The notes under the pieces were generated by a model, which had not been told where the DNA came from, searched no databases, and saw only the letters and a list, made by a program, of their open reading frames with translations. Made by a program: the position numbers and the translations under genes. From NCBI GenBank assembly GCA_036704125.1, contig DATNQI010000004.1:1-64000 (forward strand): a stretch of DNA of 64,000 nt, written 5' to 3'. Source of the DNA: Pantanalinema sp. GTDB lineage: Bacteria > Cyanobacteriota > Sericytochromatia > S15B-MN24 > UBA4093. Below are positions 45,526 through 50,737 of the stretch, piece after piece (the first letter of the stretch is position 1; each line of letters starts with the position of its first letter).

Positions 45526-46527
45526 CTAGTCGAGGTCCTCTTCCGGGCGCGGGGCGAGCAGGTCGCGCTTGGCGAGGGCCATCAGGCCCCGCACCATCTT
45601 GCTGGTGACGTGCAGATCGAGGGTGGTGATCTCGTCGATGGTCCCGAAGGAGGGCGGCGGCTCGGCGGGCTCGAGGTCCGAAACCCGGATGGGCTGCACG
45701 GCCTTGGTGCTCTTGACCCGCTTGGGCCAGAAGCGATCGAGGGCATCCAGCAGCTCGGGGGCGCGCGCGTTGGAGAAGTCCGCCAGCGCCACGGCCGCCG
45801 CCTCGGCGTCGAAGACGTCCGCGGGCTTCGCGTCCTGGATGGCCCCGATCCACTTGCCACGGCCCTTTGCCGCCTGCTTGCGCAGGTGGTGGCTCACGTA
45901 GGCCTCGTAGTAGGCGTTGAGGTTGGTCGAAAGCGTCGAGAGGCGCTTGGCGTCGAGCTTGGCGTCCAGGAGCTGGCGCCACAGGATCGGCTTGGTGTGG
46001 TAGGGCTGGCCCATGTCCTCGAGGTAGTGGACCGATCGCGCCAGGAAGCGGAAGCCCCAGTAGGTGTCCTTCTTGTTGAAGGCGACGCGGGCGAGGTCGT
46101 AGTAGGCCCTGGAGCGCGCGGGTCCCTCGCCGAGCTTCACGACCCCGTTGGCCAGGTGGTAGCTCCGGTGGCGGTAGCCGCGGGATCCGCCGGCCAGGGC
46201 CTGGGCGGGCGAGGCCGAGAGGCCGTCGTCGAGGCCCCAGTCCGGTTCGTCCGCGTACCGGATCATGACCTCGCGGGCGTTGGTCGTCTCGCCCACCAGC
46301 TTGTCGAGGTAGACGGGCTTGTAGTCGGGGTTGATCCCCTTCTCCTGCGCGGCGTAGGTGTAGGGGGTCACCTTGATCGCTCGGTACTGGTTGAGCCACG
46401 AGACCTCGCGCAGGATCTCGCGGGTCAACAGGTCGTGATCGGCCCAGGCCATGGCGCTCGCCGGGAAGAGGGCGCAGGCGGCCACGAGGGCGCAGAGGGC
46501 TGAGGCGACGGGACGCTTGGGAATCAT
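45526..46527 (-). CDS. Secreted phospholipase C / P1 nuclease-like protein
   Basis: 333 residues. A signal peptide (ASALCALVAACALFPASAMA) is followed immediately by WADHDLLTREIL, as in zinc-dependent phospholipase C where the mature N-terminal Trp binds zinc. Further possible ligands are in RHRSYHLANG and HYLEDMGQPYHT, the latter being the hallmark helix of this fold. So it is a probable extracytoplasmic trinuclear-zinc enzyme. The substrate could be phospholipid or nucleic acid. The last 90 residues are outside the known fold. Confidence 0.8.
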   Translation of the reverse strand: MIPKRPVASALCALVAACALFPASAMAWADHDLLTREILREVSWLNQYRAIKVTPYTYAAQEKGINPDYKPVYLDKLVGETTNAREVMIRYADEPDWGLDDGLSASPAQALAGGSRGYRHRSYHLANGVVKLGEGPARSRAYYDLARVAFNKKDTYWGFRFLARSVHYLEDMGQPYHTKPILWRQLLDAKLDAKRLSTLSTNLNAYYEAYVSHHLRKQAAKGRGKWIGAIQDAKPADVFDAEAAAVALADFSNARAPELLDALDRFWPKRVKSTKAVQPIRVSDLEPAEPPPSFGTIDEITTLDLHVTSKMVRGLMALAKRDLLAPRPEEDLD

Positions 46528-46606: not shown

Positions 46607-46635
46607 GGAACCTAATCGGGGCTGAGCGAGTCTCG
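46607..46635 (+). promoter_or_regulatory. ECF-type promoter of the sigma factor operon
   Basis: GGAACCT (46607-46613), 16 bases, then GTCTCG (46630-46635), 18 bases before the sigma factor ATG. The form GGAACYT-N16-GTCT fits RpoE/ECF promoters and recurs before the htrA gene. Autoregulation is the usual case in this family. Confidence 0.55.
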
Positions 46636-46652
46636 TGGTATAAGGGTGGAGC

Positions 46653-47240
46653 ATGAACCCCAACGCGGCAGACGAAACAGCACTCATCAAGGCCTACCAA
46701 CAAGGCGACAAGCGCGCCGCGGAGGCGATCTTTCGACGCTACCACCCCATGGTCCACGCCCTGGCGACGCGGATGCTCGGGAACGCGGCCGAGGTCGACG
46801 ACGCGGTGCAGGAGGCGTTCATCCGCGCCTTTCGCGGCCTGAAGACCTTCCGCGGCGACTCCTCGCTCAAGACCTGGATCTACCGGGTCGCCACCAACGT
46901 CTGCCTGACCCAGGCGGACAAGATCAAGCGGACGCAGCCCTACGACAGCCTCGACGATCCGCTCGGCGAGGAGGGGGGCGAGACCCGCGGCAGCCAGATC
47001 CCCTCCGGGGAGCGGCCTCCGGACGAGGTCCTGCTGGGAGAGGAGCTGGGCGACAAGATCCAGGCGGCGCTGGCCAAGCTGAGTCCCGAGTTCCGGGCGG
47101 TGCTGATCCTGCGCGACGTGGAGGGGCTCTCGTACGAGGAGGTGGCGGCCACGACCGGCGCCAACCTCGGGACCGTCAAGTCGAGGCTGGCGCGGGCGCG
47201 GACCCAGGCCATGCGCTGGCTCAAGGAGTATCTGGGATGA
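46653..47240 (+). CDS. ECF sigma factor (RpoE-like)
   Basis: 195 residues, two-domain ECF architecture. Region 2 reads AIFRRYHPMVHALATRMLGNAAEVDDAVQEAFIRAFRG and FRGDSSLKTWIYRVATNVCL. Region 4 reads LSPEFRAVLILRDVEGLSYEEVAATTGANLGTVKSRLARAR. The linker of about 45 residues is Gly/Glu-rich. It overlaps or nearly overlaps the downstream anti-sigma gene, which carries a zinc-binding motif, and an RseB-like gene follows, the layout of an envelope-stress sigma system. Confidence 0.95.
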   Translation: MNPNAADETALIKAYQQGDKRAAEAIFRRYHPMVHALATRMLGNAAEVDDAVQEAFIRAFRGLKTFRGDSSLKTWIYRVATNVCLTQADKIKRTQPYDSLDDPLGEEGGETRGSQIPSGERPPDEVLLGEELGDKIQAALAKLSPEFRAVLILRDVEGLSYEEVAATTGANLGTVKSRLARARTQAMRWLKEYLG

Positions 47241-47257
47241 GAACGGAGGATCCGGTG

Positions 47258-47707
47258 ATGGATTGCGACCATGCGAAGCTGCAGCTCTCGAGCTACATCG
47301 ACGACTGCGTCTCGCCGGACGAGGCCCACTGGCTCCACGCCCACCTCTCGGGCTGTCCGGCGTGCACCCGGCACCTGGCGGAGCTGCTCGCCACCCTCCA
47401 GGCCCTGCGCGCCCTGCCGCGCCTCCTGCCGGGCACCGACTGCTGGGAGGCCGTCGCCTTCACCCTGCGGCGCGAGGGCCTGATCCGCGCCTGGTGGGCG
47501 CGCCCGCTGCCCTGGGGGGTGGCCACGGCCGGCGCGGTCGCCGTGGTGGTCGCCTACACCGCGCTGAGGCCCGCCCCGCCTCCCGCGAGCCTCGACGCCT
47601 ACTGGCGCGAGCACGCCATCTTCACCGCCCAGGAGGAGCCCGCGCCCTTCAGCGGTGGCCCCTCCATCGACGCCATCGAGGCCACCTTCCAGCTCCAGGG
47701 GGAATGA
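47258..47707 (+). CDS. Zinc-finger anti-sigma factor (membrane-bound)
   Basis: 149 residues from the ATG at 47258, which has GGAGGA seven bases upstream. An alternative ATG at 47237 overlaps the sigma factor stop by ATGA. The N-terminal HAHLSGCPACTRHL is the HxxxCxxC zinc motif of ZAS anti-sigma domains. One transmembrane segment (GVATAGAVAVVVAYTAL) near residues 85-102 places the C-terminus outside the inner membrane. It should hold the sigma factor inactive until envelope stress. Its end overlaps the next gene by ATGA. Confidence 0.85.
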   Translation: MDCDHAKLQLSSYIDDCVSPDEAHWLHAHLSGCPACTRHLAELLATLQALRALPRLLPGTDCWEAVAFTLRREGLIRAWWARPLPWGVATAGAVAVVVAYTALRPAPPPASLDAYWREHAIFTAQEEPAPFSGGPSIDAIEATFQLQGE

Positions 47708-48693
47708 TGCGCAAATTCGCCCTCGGTATCGCCTCGCTCTCGGTCCTGGCCCTCCTCTCTCCTTCGGCCCAGGCCACCGCCGAGCCTTCGTTCGCGCGCC
47801 TGGTCCAGGCCGGCCAGGTCCCCTACGTGGGCGAGCTGGTGGTCAACGGCCGCACCGTCCTCAGGGTGACCCACGGCGCGGGCGATCGCCGCAGGCAGGA
47901 GGTCGTCTCGCCCGCGCGCATGGCCGGCGAGCTGGTGGTGGACAACGGCAAGACGCGCTGGCACTACTCGCCGAGGACCCAGCGGGTCGACATCACCCCC
48001 TCGACGCTGGGCCTGCGCCGCCCGATGGTCAGCGAGCGCCTGCTGTCTCGCAACTTCCGGCTCGAGGTGGGTTCGCGCGCGACGGTCCTCGGGCGTCCGA
48101 CCCGCATCGTCGAGATCGTTCCTCTGCACCCGGGCCGCTCGCGCCAGCGCCTCTGGATGGACGTGGCGACGGGCCTGGCGCTCAGGACCGAGCACCTGAG
48201 CCCCTCGGGCCTCGTCCTCGATCGCAGCGAGTTCCGCTCCATCCAGGTCCAGACCGCGCTGAAGCCCGACGCCTTCGAGTTCACCCTTCCCCCTCGCGCG
48301 AAGGTGGGCAGCTCGGTGCAGGTGCTGGCCTCGGGCCAGACCCTCGATGAAATCGACGTGGAGCTGCCGTTCACACCCAGGCTGCCGAGCTACCTGCCCG
48401 CCGGCTTCGAGGTGCTCGACGTCCAGGTCTTCGAGAGCAAGGGCGTCCGCAACGTCCACTGGCGCCTCAGCGACGGGCTCGGTATGCTCTCGCTGTTCCA
48501 GGCGACCCGCGAGAGCATGCCCCCCATGCCCGAAGACGCTCGGGAGGTCACCTTCGAGGGCGGCCGCGGCCACGTGTTGGGCCACGGCTCCCACCGGATG
48601 CTCTGCTGGGAGATGCCGAACGGCTCCTACTCGCTGGTGGGCGACCTCGCCCAGAGCGAGCTGACCAAGATCGCGGCCTCCACGGCCCCCTGA
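47704..48693 (+). CDS. RseB/MucB-like periplasmic sigma regulatory protein
   Basis: 329 residues. A signal peptide (ALGIASLSVLALLSPSAQA) is followed by a LolA-like fold (FARLVQAGQVPYVGELVVNGR, RLEVGSRATVLGRPTRIVEIVP, RQRLWMDVATGLALRTEHL) and a smaller C-terminal domain (PSYLPAGFEVLDVQVFESKG, LGMLSLFQAT), the arrangement of RseB/MucB and of the related outer-membrane lipoprotein sorting-like proteins. RseB protects the anti-sigma factor from proteolysis. It starts with the double ATGATG that overlaps the anti-sigma stop. Confidence 0.85.
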   Translation: MMRKFALGIASLSVLALLSPSAQATAEPSFARLVQAGQVPYVGELVVNGRTVLRVTHGAGDRRRQEVVSPARMAGELVVDNGKTRWHYSPRTQRVDITPSTLGLRRPMVSERLLSRNFRLEVGSRATVLGRPTRIVEIVPLHPGRSRQRLWMDVATGLALRTEHLSPSGLVLDRSEFRSIQVQTALKPDAFEFTLPPRAKVGSSVQVLASGQTLDEIDVELPFTPRLPSYLPAGFEVLDVQVFESKGVRNVHWRLSDGLGMLSLFQATRESMPPMPEDAREVTFEGGRGHVLGHGSHRMLCWEMPNGSYSLVGDLAQSELTKIAASTAP

Positions 48694-48711
48694 GCGATCG
48701 CTCGCTTGCGG

Positions 48712-48740
48712 GGAACTTTTTCGATCCCTCGTTGGTCTAT
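48712..48740 (+). promoter_or_regulatory. ECF-type promoter of the htrA gene
   Basis: GGAACTT (48712-48718), 16 bases, GTCTAT (48735-48740). The -35 is the exact RpoE-type consensus and the spacing equals that of the sigma operon promoter at 46607. It lies 19 bases after the stop of the RseB-like gene and 66 bases before the htrA ATG. Confidence 0.65.
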
Positions 48741-48806: not shown

Positions 48807-49997
48807 ATGCGCATGCGCGTGATACCCGCTGCCCTCACCCTGGTGATCGGCGCCGGCGGGGGCGCCATCGGAGCCGCGGCGGTGCTCGCCGCCAAGCCCG
48901 CCGTCGAAGCCCAGCCCGCCTTCGCGACGCCCACCACCGCTCCCATGCCGGTCGTCGCCAGCGGCACCGAGGTCATCGCGGACCTGGTCGACAGGGTGGG
49001 GCCGGCGGTGGTGAACATCGACACGGTCAGCGAGCGGCGGGTTCCCGCCTACTCGTTCAATCCCTTTTCCTTGGATGACTTCTTCAACGGCCAGCCCATG
49101 CAGCAGCGCCAGCGGATCGTCCAGCAGAAGGGGGTCGGCTCGGGCTTCGTCGTGCGCCCCGACGGCCTGATCGTCACCAACAACCACGTGGTCGCGGGCG
49201 CCACCGAGCTGAGCGTGACCCTGCCGGACGGCCGCAAGTTCAAGGGCAAGCTGATCGGCACCGACCCCGGCAGCGACCTCGCGCTGGTCAAGGTGGAGGC
49301 CAAGGACCTGCCCGCCCTCAAGCTCGCCGACCCCAAGAGCCTGCGCGTGGGCCAGTGGACGGTCGCCATCGGCAGCCCGCTGGGCCTGAGCCACTCGGTC
49401 ACCGCCGGCATCCTGAGCGCCATGGACCGCGAGGTCTCGCTCAACAACCGGGTCGGCTTCCTGCAGACGAGCACGCCCATCAACCCGGGCAACTCGGGAG
49501 GGCCCTTGCTCAACATGAAGGGCGAGGTGATCGGGGTCAACACGGCGGTGGCGGCCCACGCCCAGGGGATCGGCTTCGCGGTGCCGGTGGACACCGTCTC
49601 GCGCATCATTCCCCAGCTCGAGGCCAAGGGCAAGGTCGAGCGCGCCTGGCTGGGGGTGGGCCTCAAGGACCTGCCCGACAACCGCCAGGCCATGTTCTAC
49701 CCGGTGGATGCCGGGGTGATCGTCGCCCAGGTGGACCCCAGGGGCCCGGCCGCCAAGGCGGGCCTCACGACCGGCGACGTGGTGCAGGCGCTCAACGGCA
49801 AGCCCGTCAAGAACGCGCACGACCTGATCGTCGCGGTGGGTACCCTCAAGGTCGGCGAGAAGGTCTCCTTGCTGGTCAACCGCGAGGGCCAGAAGAAGAC
49901 CCTCGACGTCACCCTCGGCCAGATGCCGCAGCGGGTCGCCAACGCTGCGCAAGAGCAGCAGCAGCCCATGGAGGCGCAGCCGGACGACGGCGAATAG
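48807..49997 (+). CDS. HtrA/Deg family serine protease with one PDZ domain
   Basis: 396 residues. A signal anchor (ALTLVIGAGGGAIGAAAVLAA) leads to a trypsin-like domain with the triad His in TNNHVV, Asp in SDLALVK and Ser in GNSGGPL. One PDZ domain follows (GVIVAQVDPRGPAAKAGLTTGDVVQALNGKPV), so it resembles DegS/HhoA rather than DegP with two PDZ domains. Such periplasmic proteases degrade misfolded proteins or trigger sigma-E release. The ECF-type promoter upstream fits a stress role in the adjacent sigma system. Confidence 0.95.
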   Translation: MRMRVIPAALTLVIGAGGGAIGAAAVLAAKPAVEAQPAFATPTTAPMPVVASGTEVIADLVDRVGPAVVNIDTVSERRVPAYSFNPFSLDDFFNGQPMQQRQRIVQQKGVGSGFVVRPDGLIVTNNHVVAGATELSVTLPDGRKFKGKLIGTDPGSDLALVKVEAKDLPALKLADPKSLRVGQWTVAIGSPLGLSHSVTAGILSAMDREVSLNNRVGFLQTSTPINPGNSGGPLLNMKGEVIGVNTAVAAHAQGIGFAVPVDTVSRIIPQLEAKGKVERAWLGVGLKDLPDNRQAMFYPVDAGVIVAQVDPRGPAAKAGLTTGDVVQALNGKPVKNAHDLIVAVGTLKVGEKVSLLVNREGQKKTLDVTLGQMPQRVANAAQEQQQPMEAQPDDGE

Positions 49998-50074: not shown

Positions 50075-50737
50075 ATGAAAGCATTCGCAAGCATCTGCCT
50101 CGCTACGGCGATCGTCGCGTTGCCGCAAAACGCCCTGGCCGAGCCCGAAGCGCCCTCGCTCGATCTCTCGATCGTGCGCGGGGTCAACACCCTCGGGTCG
50201 CCGGCGCTGGATGCGCCCATGGGCCTGCTGTCCAACAACGTCTTCCTGCTGGGCGCTCCGCTCGCCCTCGCGGTGGCGGCCGACCACACCACCTTCAAGG
50301 CCCCCGCCGCGGCCTTCGTCGCCGAGGGGCTCGCCGGCATGAGCGTCATGCTGATCAAGCCGCTCTTCGAGCGGCCGCGGCCCTTCGCGGCGGACCCCTC
50401 GCTGCGCACGCCGAGCGGAAAGTGGGAGACGGATCCCAACAGCTTCCCCTCGGGCCATGCGGCCGTGTCCTTCGCGGCGGCCACGGCGATCGCCGACGCG
50501 CGGCCGGATTACGCCTGGCCGGCCTACGGCCTGGCTGCCCTCATCAGCTACTCGCGGATGTACAACGGGGTCCACTACCCCACCGACCTGCTGGCGGGGG
50601 CGCTTCTGGGCTACGGGGCGGGCAAGGTCACGACCTGGGGGATGAGCCAGGTGACGGATCGCCTCGGCTGGCCTATCTCGGGGAAAGTGGTCCCTGGAAG
50701 CGACGCGCTCACCTTCGGCTTCGCTAGGCAGTTCTGA
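50075..50737 (+). CDS. Secreted PAP2 family phosphatase
   Basis: 220 residues. A signal peptide (ICLATAIVALPQNALAE) precedes the acid phosphatase PAP2 core: KPLFERPRP (KX6RP, motif 1), PSGHA (motif 2) and SRMYNGVHYPTD (SRX5HX3D, motif 3). All catalytic residues are present. Likely substrates are lipid phosphates such as undecaprenyl pyrophosphate or phosphatidic acid. GAGGGAGGA precedes the ATG. Confidence 0.92.
   Translation: MKAFASICLATAIVALPQNALAEPEAPSLDLSIVRGVNTLGSPALDAPMGLLSNNVFLLGAPLALAVAADHTTFKAPAAAFVAEGLAGMSVMLIKPLFERPRPFAADPSLRTPSGKWETDPNSFPSGHAAVSFAAATAIADARPDYAWPAYGLAALISYSRMYNGVHYPTDLLAGALLGYGAGKVTTWGMSQVTDRLGWPISGKVVPGSDALTFGFARQF

What the first reader, a model, noticed from the sequence alone, without database searches (positions are those of the whole stretch)
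46607..48740. ECF sigma operon and htrA share GGAACYT-N16-GTCT promoters
The sigma factor gene is preceded by GGAACCT-N16-GTCTCG and htrA by GGAACTT-N16-GTCTAT, with identical spacing, and both fit the sigma-E promoter form. With the anti-sigma, RseB-like and HtrA genes in between, the four-gene block looks like a self-contained envelope-stress regulon.
Basis: partly seen in the sequence, partly recalled or inferred. Interest (0 to 1): 0.65.

Follow-up and report, generated by a model that had tools for sequence, protein, structure and literature searches.

The report
Envelope-stress sigma regulon in non-photosynthetic cyanobacteria

Summary
GGAACCT-N16-GTC lies 20 nt before the ECF sigma gene and GGAACTT-N16-GTC 69 nt before htrA; each is about a 1% chance event. 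A GGAAC-N17/18-GTC site precedes the sigma gene in four of five related genomes, and precedes htrA as first gene of the operon in the fifth. The unlinked htrA of G003 carries a near-copy of the window's htrA site. The third gene is a real RseB homologue: its predicted two-domain fold matches RseB/MucB as the top 15 PDB hits. The anti-sigma differs from RseA: it is zinc-type (Hx3Cx2C). The block is not self-contained. In the own genome the motif also precedes bamA (heading bamA-skp-lpx) and an M48 lipoprotease; in relatives it precedes skp, lpxC, lptC and bamA. These resemble the E. coli sigma-E regulon. Limits: raw motif counts are not enriched genome-wide (only placement before genes is, 7/26 versus 0/18 at wrong spacing), the sister genome lacks the htrA site, and nothing was measured. 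The phylum holds psbA-bearing genomes and the window's class none, so the host is very probably a non-photosynthetic cyanobacterial lineage. Verdict: new variant of the sigma-E/RseB kind.

The parts
46607..46635 (+). Candidate autoregulatory promoter GGAACCT-N16-GTCTCG of the sigma operon
   Evidence: GGAAC-N17/18-GTC conserved before the orthologous sigma gene in G001, G003, G005, G010 and before the operon's first gene in G002; 0.9% of shuffles
46653..47240 (+). ECF sigma factor, 195 aa; its stop overlaps the anti-sigma ATG (ATGA)
   Evidence: Sigma70_r2 3e-20, Sigma70_r4_2 9e-17; 36% identity to E. coli RpoE; below the RpoE equivalog cut-off
47237..47707 (+). Zinc-type anti-sigma factor: N-terminal Hx3Cx2C domain, one probable transmembrane helix, short tail with invariant W..H..F (YWREHAIF)
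   Evidence: zf-HC2 1.7e-8; H, C, C and W, H, F invariant in six genomes; weak fold matches to RslA, RsiW, MucA-cyto; the transmembrane helix is read from the sequence
47707..48693 (+). RseB homologue, probably exported, two-domain (LolA-like plus C-terminal domain)
   Evidence: MucB_RseB 7.5e-11; pLDDT 84.5, top 15 PDB hits RseB/MucB over 308-324 columns; hhalign to E. coli RseB 97.3%, 2.4e-11
48712..48740 (+). Candidate htrA promoter GGAACTT-N16-GTCTAT
   Evidence: near-copy before the unlinked htrA of G003 and related site before htrA of G002; absent in G001
48807..49997 (+). HtrA/DegP-family protease with one PDZ domain and an N-terminal signal or anchor
   Evidence: Trypsin_2 1.9e-37, PDZ_2 7.6e-17; degP_htrA_DO 3.8e-111 (372 bits, cut-off 416)

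Best explanation
This is a sigma-E-type envelope-stress switch. The ECF sigma factor transcribes its own operon from the 46607 promoter and htrA from the 48712 promoter (inferred from motif and conservation). At rest it is held at the membrane by the zinc-type anti-sigma, whose extracytoplasmic tail is probably bound and protected by the RseB homologue (inferred from fold, gene overlap and co-occurrence). Envelope damage, such as unfolded outer-membrane proteins, mislocalised lipoproteins or off-pathway LPS, would dislodge RseB and allow stepwise proteolysis of the anti-sigma (by analogy with E. coli; the proteases were not searched for). The freed sigma factor then raises HtrA and, outside the window, outer-membrane assembly genes such as the bamA-skp-lpx operon and an M48 lipoprotease. 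Shown here: the sequences, gene families, predicted RseB fold, conserved promoter motif and its position before these genes. Inferred: promoter activity, signal, RseB-tail binding and proteolysis.
For: Promoter boxes present and near 1% by chance each; conserved before sigma in G001, G003, G005, G010 and before the operon in G002; htrA site in own, G002 and unlinked G003. RseB fold. The sigma orthologue (46-63% identity) and RseB occur in exactly the same 6 of 18 genomes of the class. Own-genome sites lie upstream of genes in 7/26 versus 0/18 at wrong spacing (Fisher p = 0.017), six of the seven at exactly N16. Targets are largely envelope genes: bamA and an M48 lipoprotease, and in relatives skp, lpxC, lptC-A-B, bamA and an SLH protein. 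E. coli sigma-E regulates yaeT (bamA), lptA, lptB, lpxA, lpxB, lpxD and degP (PMC2215328). E. coli rpoE itself carries GGAACTT-N16-TCTAA upstream. No sigma-70 consensus promoter was found in the block.
Against: Raw motif counts in the genome are not above the reversed-pattern control. Without the two seed sites the placement test falls to 5/24 versus 0/18 (about p = 0.05, worked out by hand). The sister genome G001 has no site before htrA, and the htrA genes found in G005 and G010 have none either. Relatives use N15 or N16, and GGAACAA or GGAACCA as well as GGAACYT, so the shared element was defined partly after looking. No DegS or RseP search was made. Some relatives are bins with 7-9% contamination. 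The sigma leader is short (20 nt from GTC to ATG).
Confidence: 0.85

Rival explanations
1. The sigma factor autoregulates its operon, but the motif before htrA (and before distant genes such as bamA) is used by another ECF sigma factor with overlapping -35 preference, or not at all; htrA is expressed by read-through from the sigma promoter.
For: Some class genomes hold other ECF factors related to this one; the GGAAC core is common to several ECF groups (established knowledge); the sister genome keeps the gene order without an htrA site; no consensus terminator was found between rseB and htrA on the + strand.
Against: htrA sites recur in G002 as operon-first gene and in G003 unlinked, with a near-identical sequence in G003; both window sites have the same N16 spacing.
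Confidence: 0.1
2. The motif matches are chance or compositional; the operon is transcribed by the housekeeping sigma factor.
For: Whole-genome motif counts do not exceed the reversed control.
Against: About 1% per upstream region by shuffle, yet found at the operon start in all six genomes; placement before genes is spacing-specific; no sigma-70 consensus promoter in the region.
Confidence: 0.03
3. The RseB-fold protein is a lipoprotein carrier or other LolA-fold protein that merely shares the operon and does not regulate the anti-sigma.
For: LolA structures also match the N-terminal domain, and NCBIfam gives a weak lolA hit.
Against: RseB/MucB outrank LolA (best E 2e-17 versus 2e-7) and align over both domains, while LolA covers about 190 columns; gene overlap with the anti-sigma and co-occurrence with the sigma orthologue.
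Confidence: 0.1

Closest known systems
E. coli rpoE-rseA-rseB-rseC and the sigma-E regulon
   Same: ECF sigma (36% identity), anti-sigma gene next to it, RseB fold, GGAACTT -35, promoter before its own operon, targets among degP/htrA, bamA, lpt and lpx genes (PMC2215328)
   Different: Anti-sigma is zinc-type and shows no profile similarity to RseA; no rseC in the block; htrA lies in the block; the -10 begins GTC rather than TCTAA; host outside the Proteobacteria
Pseudomonas algU-mucA-mucB-mucC-mucD
   Same: Sigma, anti-sigma, MucB/RseB and an HtrA-type protease (MucD) in one block (gene order from general knowledge; MucB fold tested)
   Different: No mucC; anti-sigma carries Hx3Cx2C; the htrA position is not conserved in relatives
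Fusobacterium nucleatum sigma-E
   Same: A sigma-E response outside Proteobacteria with its own -35 and -10 motifs and an envelope role (PMC11005410)
   Different: That paper does not mention RseB (0 occurrences); its noncoding RNA arm was not looked for here
Mycobacterium sigE-rseA-htrA
   Same: ECF sigma, anti-sigma and HtrA together (general knowledge, not tested)
   Different: No RseB and no Gram-negative outer-membrane target set (general knowledge, not tested)

Membership tests
ECF sigma factors | Sigma-70 regions 2 and 4 without region 3 | tested here: met
   Sigma70_r2 and Sigma70_r4_2, no region 3 hit; 195 aa
RpoE (NCBIfam equivalog TIGR02939) | Score at or above the curated cut-off | tested here: not met
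   127.6 bits, cut-off 236.15; the SigW and PRK11922 models score slightly higher and also fail their cut-offs
Sigma-E-type promoter | GGAACTT-like -35, about 16 nt, then a TC-containing -10 | tested here: met
   direct comparison with the E. coli rpoE upstream site
RseA anti-sigma family | Sequence similarity to RseA | tested here: not met
   hhalign probability 2%, 16 columns
Zinc-type class I anti-sigma (ASDI/ZAS) | Hx3Cx2C in a helical N-terminal domain | tested here: met
   fold matches to RslA and RsiW only at E about 0.8-0.9
RseB/MucB | Two-domain fold: LolA-like N-domain plus RseB C-domain | tested here: met
   by sequence alone only the N-domain passes Pfam, and the NCBIfam RseB cut-off is not reached
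RseB/MucB | Binds the anti-sigma tail and blocks its cleavage | not testable with these tools
   The invariant W..H..F tail motif is a candidate contact
Sigma-E pathway | DegS-like site-1 and RseP site-2 proteases | not tested
Sigma-E regulon | Outer-membrane protein and LPS biogenesis genes under the same promoter form | tested here: met
   Computational only: bamA operon and M48 (own); skp, lpxC, lptC-A-B, bamA (relatives)

The most novel reading that the evidence does not exclude
A sigma-E/RseB envelope-stress regulon covering BAM, Lpx and Lpt genes arose before, or independently of, the proteobacterial one, with RseB working on a zinc-type anti-sigma through a W..H..F tail motif, in a non-photosynthetic class of Cyanobacteriota.
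Probability: 0.3. Interest if true: 0.7.

Novelty: new variant of a known kind. Interest (0 to 1): 0.5.

Why it matters
RseB and the sigma-E regulon are known mainly from Proteobacteria (general knowledge). RseB joined to a different kind of anti-sigma, with outer-membrane assembly genes behind the same promoter form, in a psbA-less cyanobacterial class would be an independent case for asking which parts of outer-membrane stress sensing are essential and how old they are. RseB passes the family search in only 5 of 194 phylum genomes (a sixth, G010, by protein search), so its gain or loss could be traced.

Tried and rejected
Counting the motif genome-wide was uninformative: the reversed control is usually as frequent or more. 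A named-genome scan with the sigma protein returned only distant ECF factors at 40% identity or less; several top hits (Bryobacterales, Deltaproteobacteria, Acidobacteriota) have a GGAAC-N18-GTC site before their sigma gene but no RseB in the fetched stretch, so the promoter form alone is not specific to this system. I looked for a weaker site before htrA in G001: the best candidate has 4 mismatches, rejected. RseA membership of the anti-sigma was considered and rejected. Literature: no paper found that describes RseB or this regulon in non-photosynthetic Cyanobacteriota (open-access library only); a 2024 survey of cyanobacterial sigma factors mentions neither Sericytochromatia nor RseB (PMC11119718).

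Full report
Observation. Both elements exist as described: GGAACCT-N16-GTCTCG at 46607 and GGAACTT-N16-GTCTAT at 48712. GGAACYT-N15-17-GTC occurs four times in the window against 0.42 expected; the other two lie in coding sequence. In each upstream region the core GGAAC-N17/18-GTC arises in about 1% of dinucleotide shuffles.

Genes. The block is ECF sigma (46653-47240), anti-sigma (47237-47707), RseB homologue (47707-48693) and HtrA (48807-49997). The first three genes overlap by ATGA and TGATG, which suggests translational coupling (sequence). The sigma factor is 36% identical to E. coli RpoE but falls well below the RpoE equivalog cut-off, so it is RpoE-like, not a member of that curated family.

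RseB. Pfam gives MucB_RseB at 7.5e-11 for the N-terminal part only. An AlphaFold model from six homologues (pLDDT 84.5) retrieves RseB and MucB as the 15 best PDB matches, E 2e-17 to 2e-13, over both domains; LolA follows at 2e-7 over about 190 columns. hhalign to E. coli RseB spans 269 columns. By predicted fold this is an RseB homologue.

Anti-sigma. It carries Hx3Cx2C, invariant in six genomes, and shows no profile similarity to RseA. Its model is confident only in the N-terminal domain and matches the anti-sigmas RslA and RsiW, then MucA-cyto, all weakly. The tail after the probable transmembrane helix has an invariant W..H..F (YWREHAIF), which I suggest as the RseB contact (inference). 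A published survey finds the zinc motif in about half of membrane-bound class I anti-sigmas (PMC7406223), so the type is not rare in itself.

Conservation. The sigma orthologue (46-63% identity) and RseB co-occur in the same 6 of 18 genomes of the class. A GGAAC-N17/18-GTC site precedes sigma in own, G001, G003, G005 and G010; in G002 the order is htrA-sigma-anti-rseB and the site precedes htrA. G003 has htrA elsewhere, behind GGAACTTTTTCGATGCTGGATGGTC, close to the window's GGAACTTTTTCGATCCCTCGTTGGTC. G001 keeps the window's order but has no htrA site, so htrA's own promoter is not universal.

Regulon. In the own genome GGAACYT-N15/16-GTC gives 27 hits; 26 could be classified, and 7 lie 20-107 nt before a same-strand gene: sigma, htrA, bamA, an M48 lipoprotease, a DUF4139-like secreted protein (below Pfam's cut-off), a secreted TPR protein and an ABC ATPase. 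With the boxes at N19/20, 0 of 18 do so (Fisher p = 0.017; about 0.05 without the two seed sites). The bamA gene heads a run that reads bamA-skp-lpxD-lpxC-fabZ-lpxA-lpxB (bamA, skp and lpxC by Pfam; the others by reading the sequence). The same run has a site between bamA and skp in G001, before lpxC in G002 and before bamA in G005; G001 also has a site before lptC-lptA-lptB. E. coli sigma-E controls yaeT (bamA), lptA, lptB, lpxA, lpxB and lpxD (PMC2215328). The gene content matches, though the position of the site within the run shifts between genomes.

Caution. Gene calls around the sites come from a home-made codon score, the numbers are small, and the relaxed element used for relatives was settled after seeing them. 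Raw counts are not enriched over a reversed pattern. The wrong-spacing control was run only in the own genome.

Host. Twenty of 59 relatives carry psbA-family genes and none of the 18 genomes of the window's class does; the window is rich in the HIP1 octamer known from cyanobacteria (46 versus 6.7 expected). The class is therefore very probably a non-photosynthetic one within Cyanobacteriota; Sericytochromatia is my inference, not a test.

Verdict. Observation confirmed; the regulatory reading is well supported by sequence, but the regulon is not self-contained. New variant of the sigma-E/RseB kind.

Noticed in passing
window, 46 sites; 48694 and 48746 flank the htrA promoter: HIP1 octamer GCGATCGC is strongly enriched (46 versus 6.7 expected), a feature known from cyanobacteria, in a genome without psbA.
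   Followed up: partly
window 45526-46527 (-): Divergent, probably exported protein with no Pfam or NCBIfam match, conserved next to the sigma operon in G001 at 50% identity.
   Followed up: no
window 50075-50737 (+): PAP2-family gene follows htrA here and in G001; an inverted repeat without a T-run lies between htrA and it.
   Followed up: partly
L094 5069-5093 and 5965-5989 (G002): Two near-identical prepilin-like genes after rseB, each preceded by GGAACTTTTTTTC...GGTCAA, apparently a duplicated gene with its promoter-like element.
   Followed up: partly
L008, L009, L010, L011: Bryobacterales, Acidobacteriota and Deltaproteobacteria ECF genes related to this sigma also have GGAAC-N18-GTC just upstream, without RseB in the fetched stretch.
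   Followed up: partly
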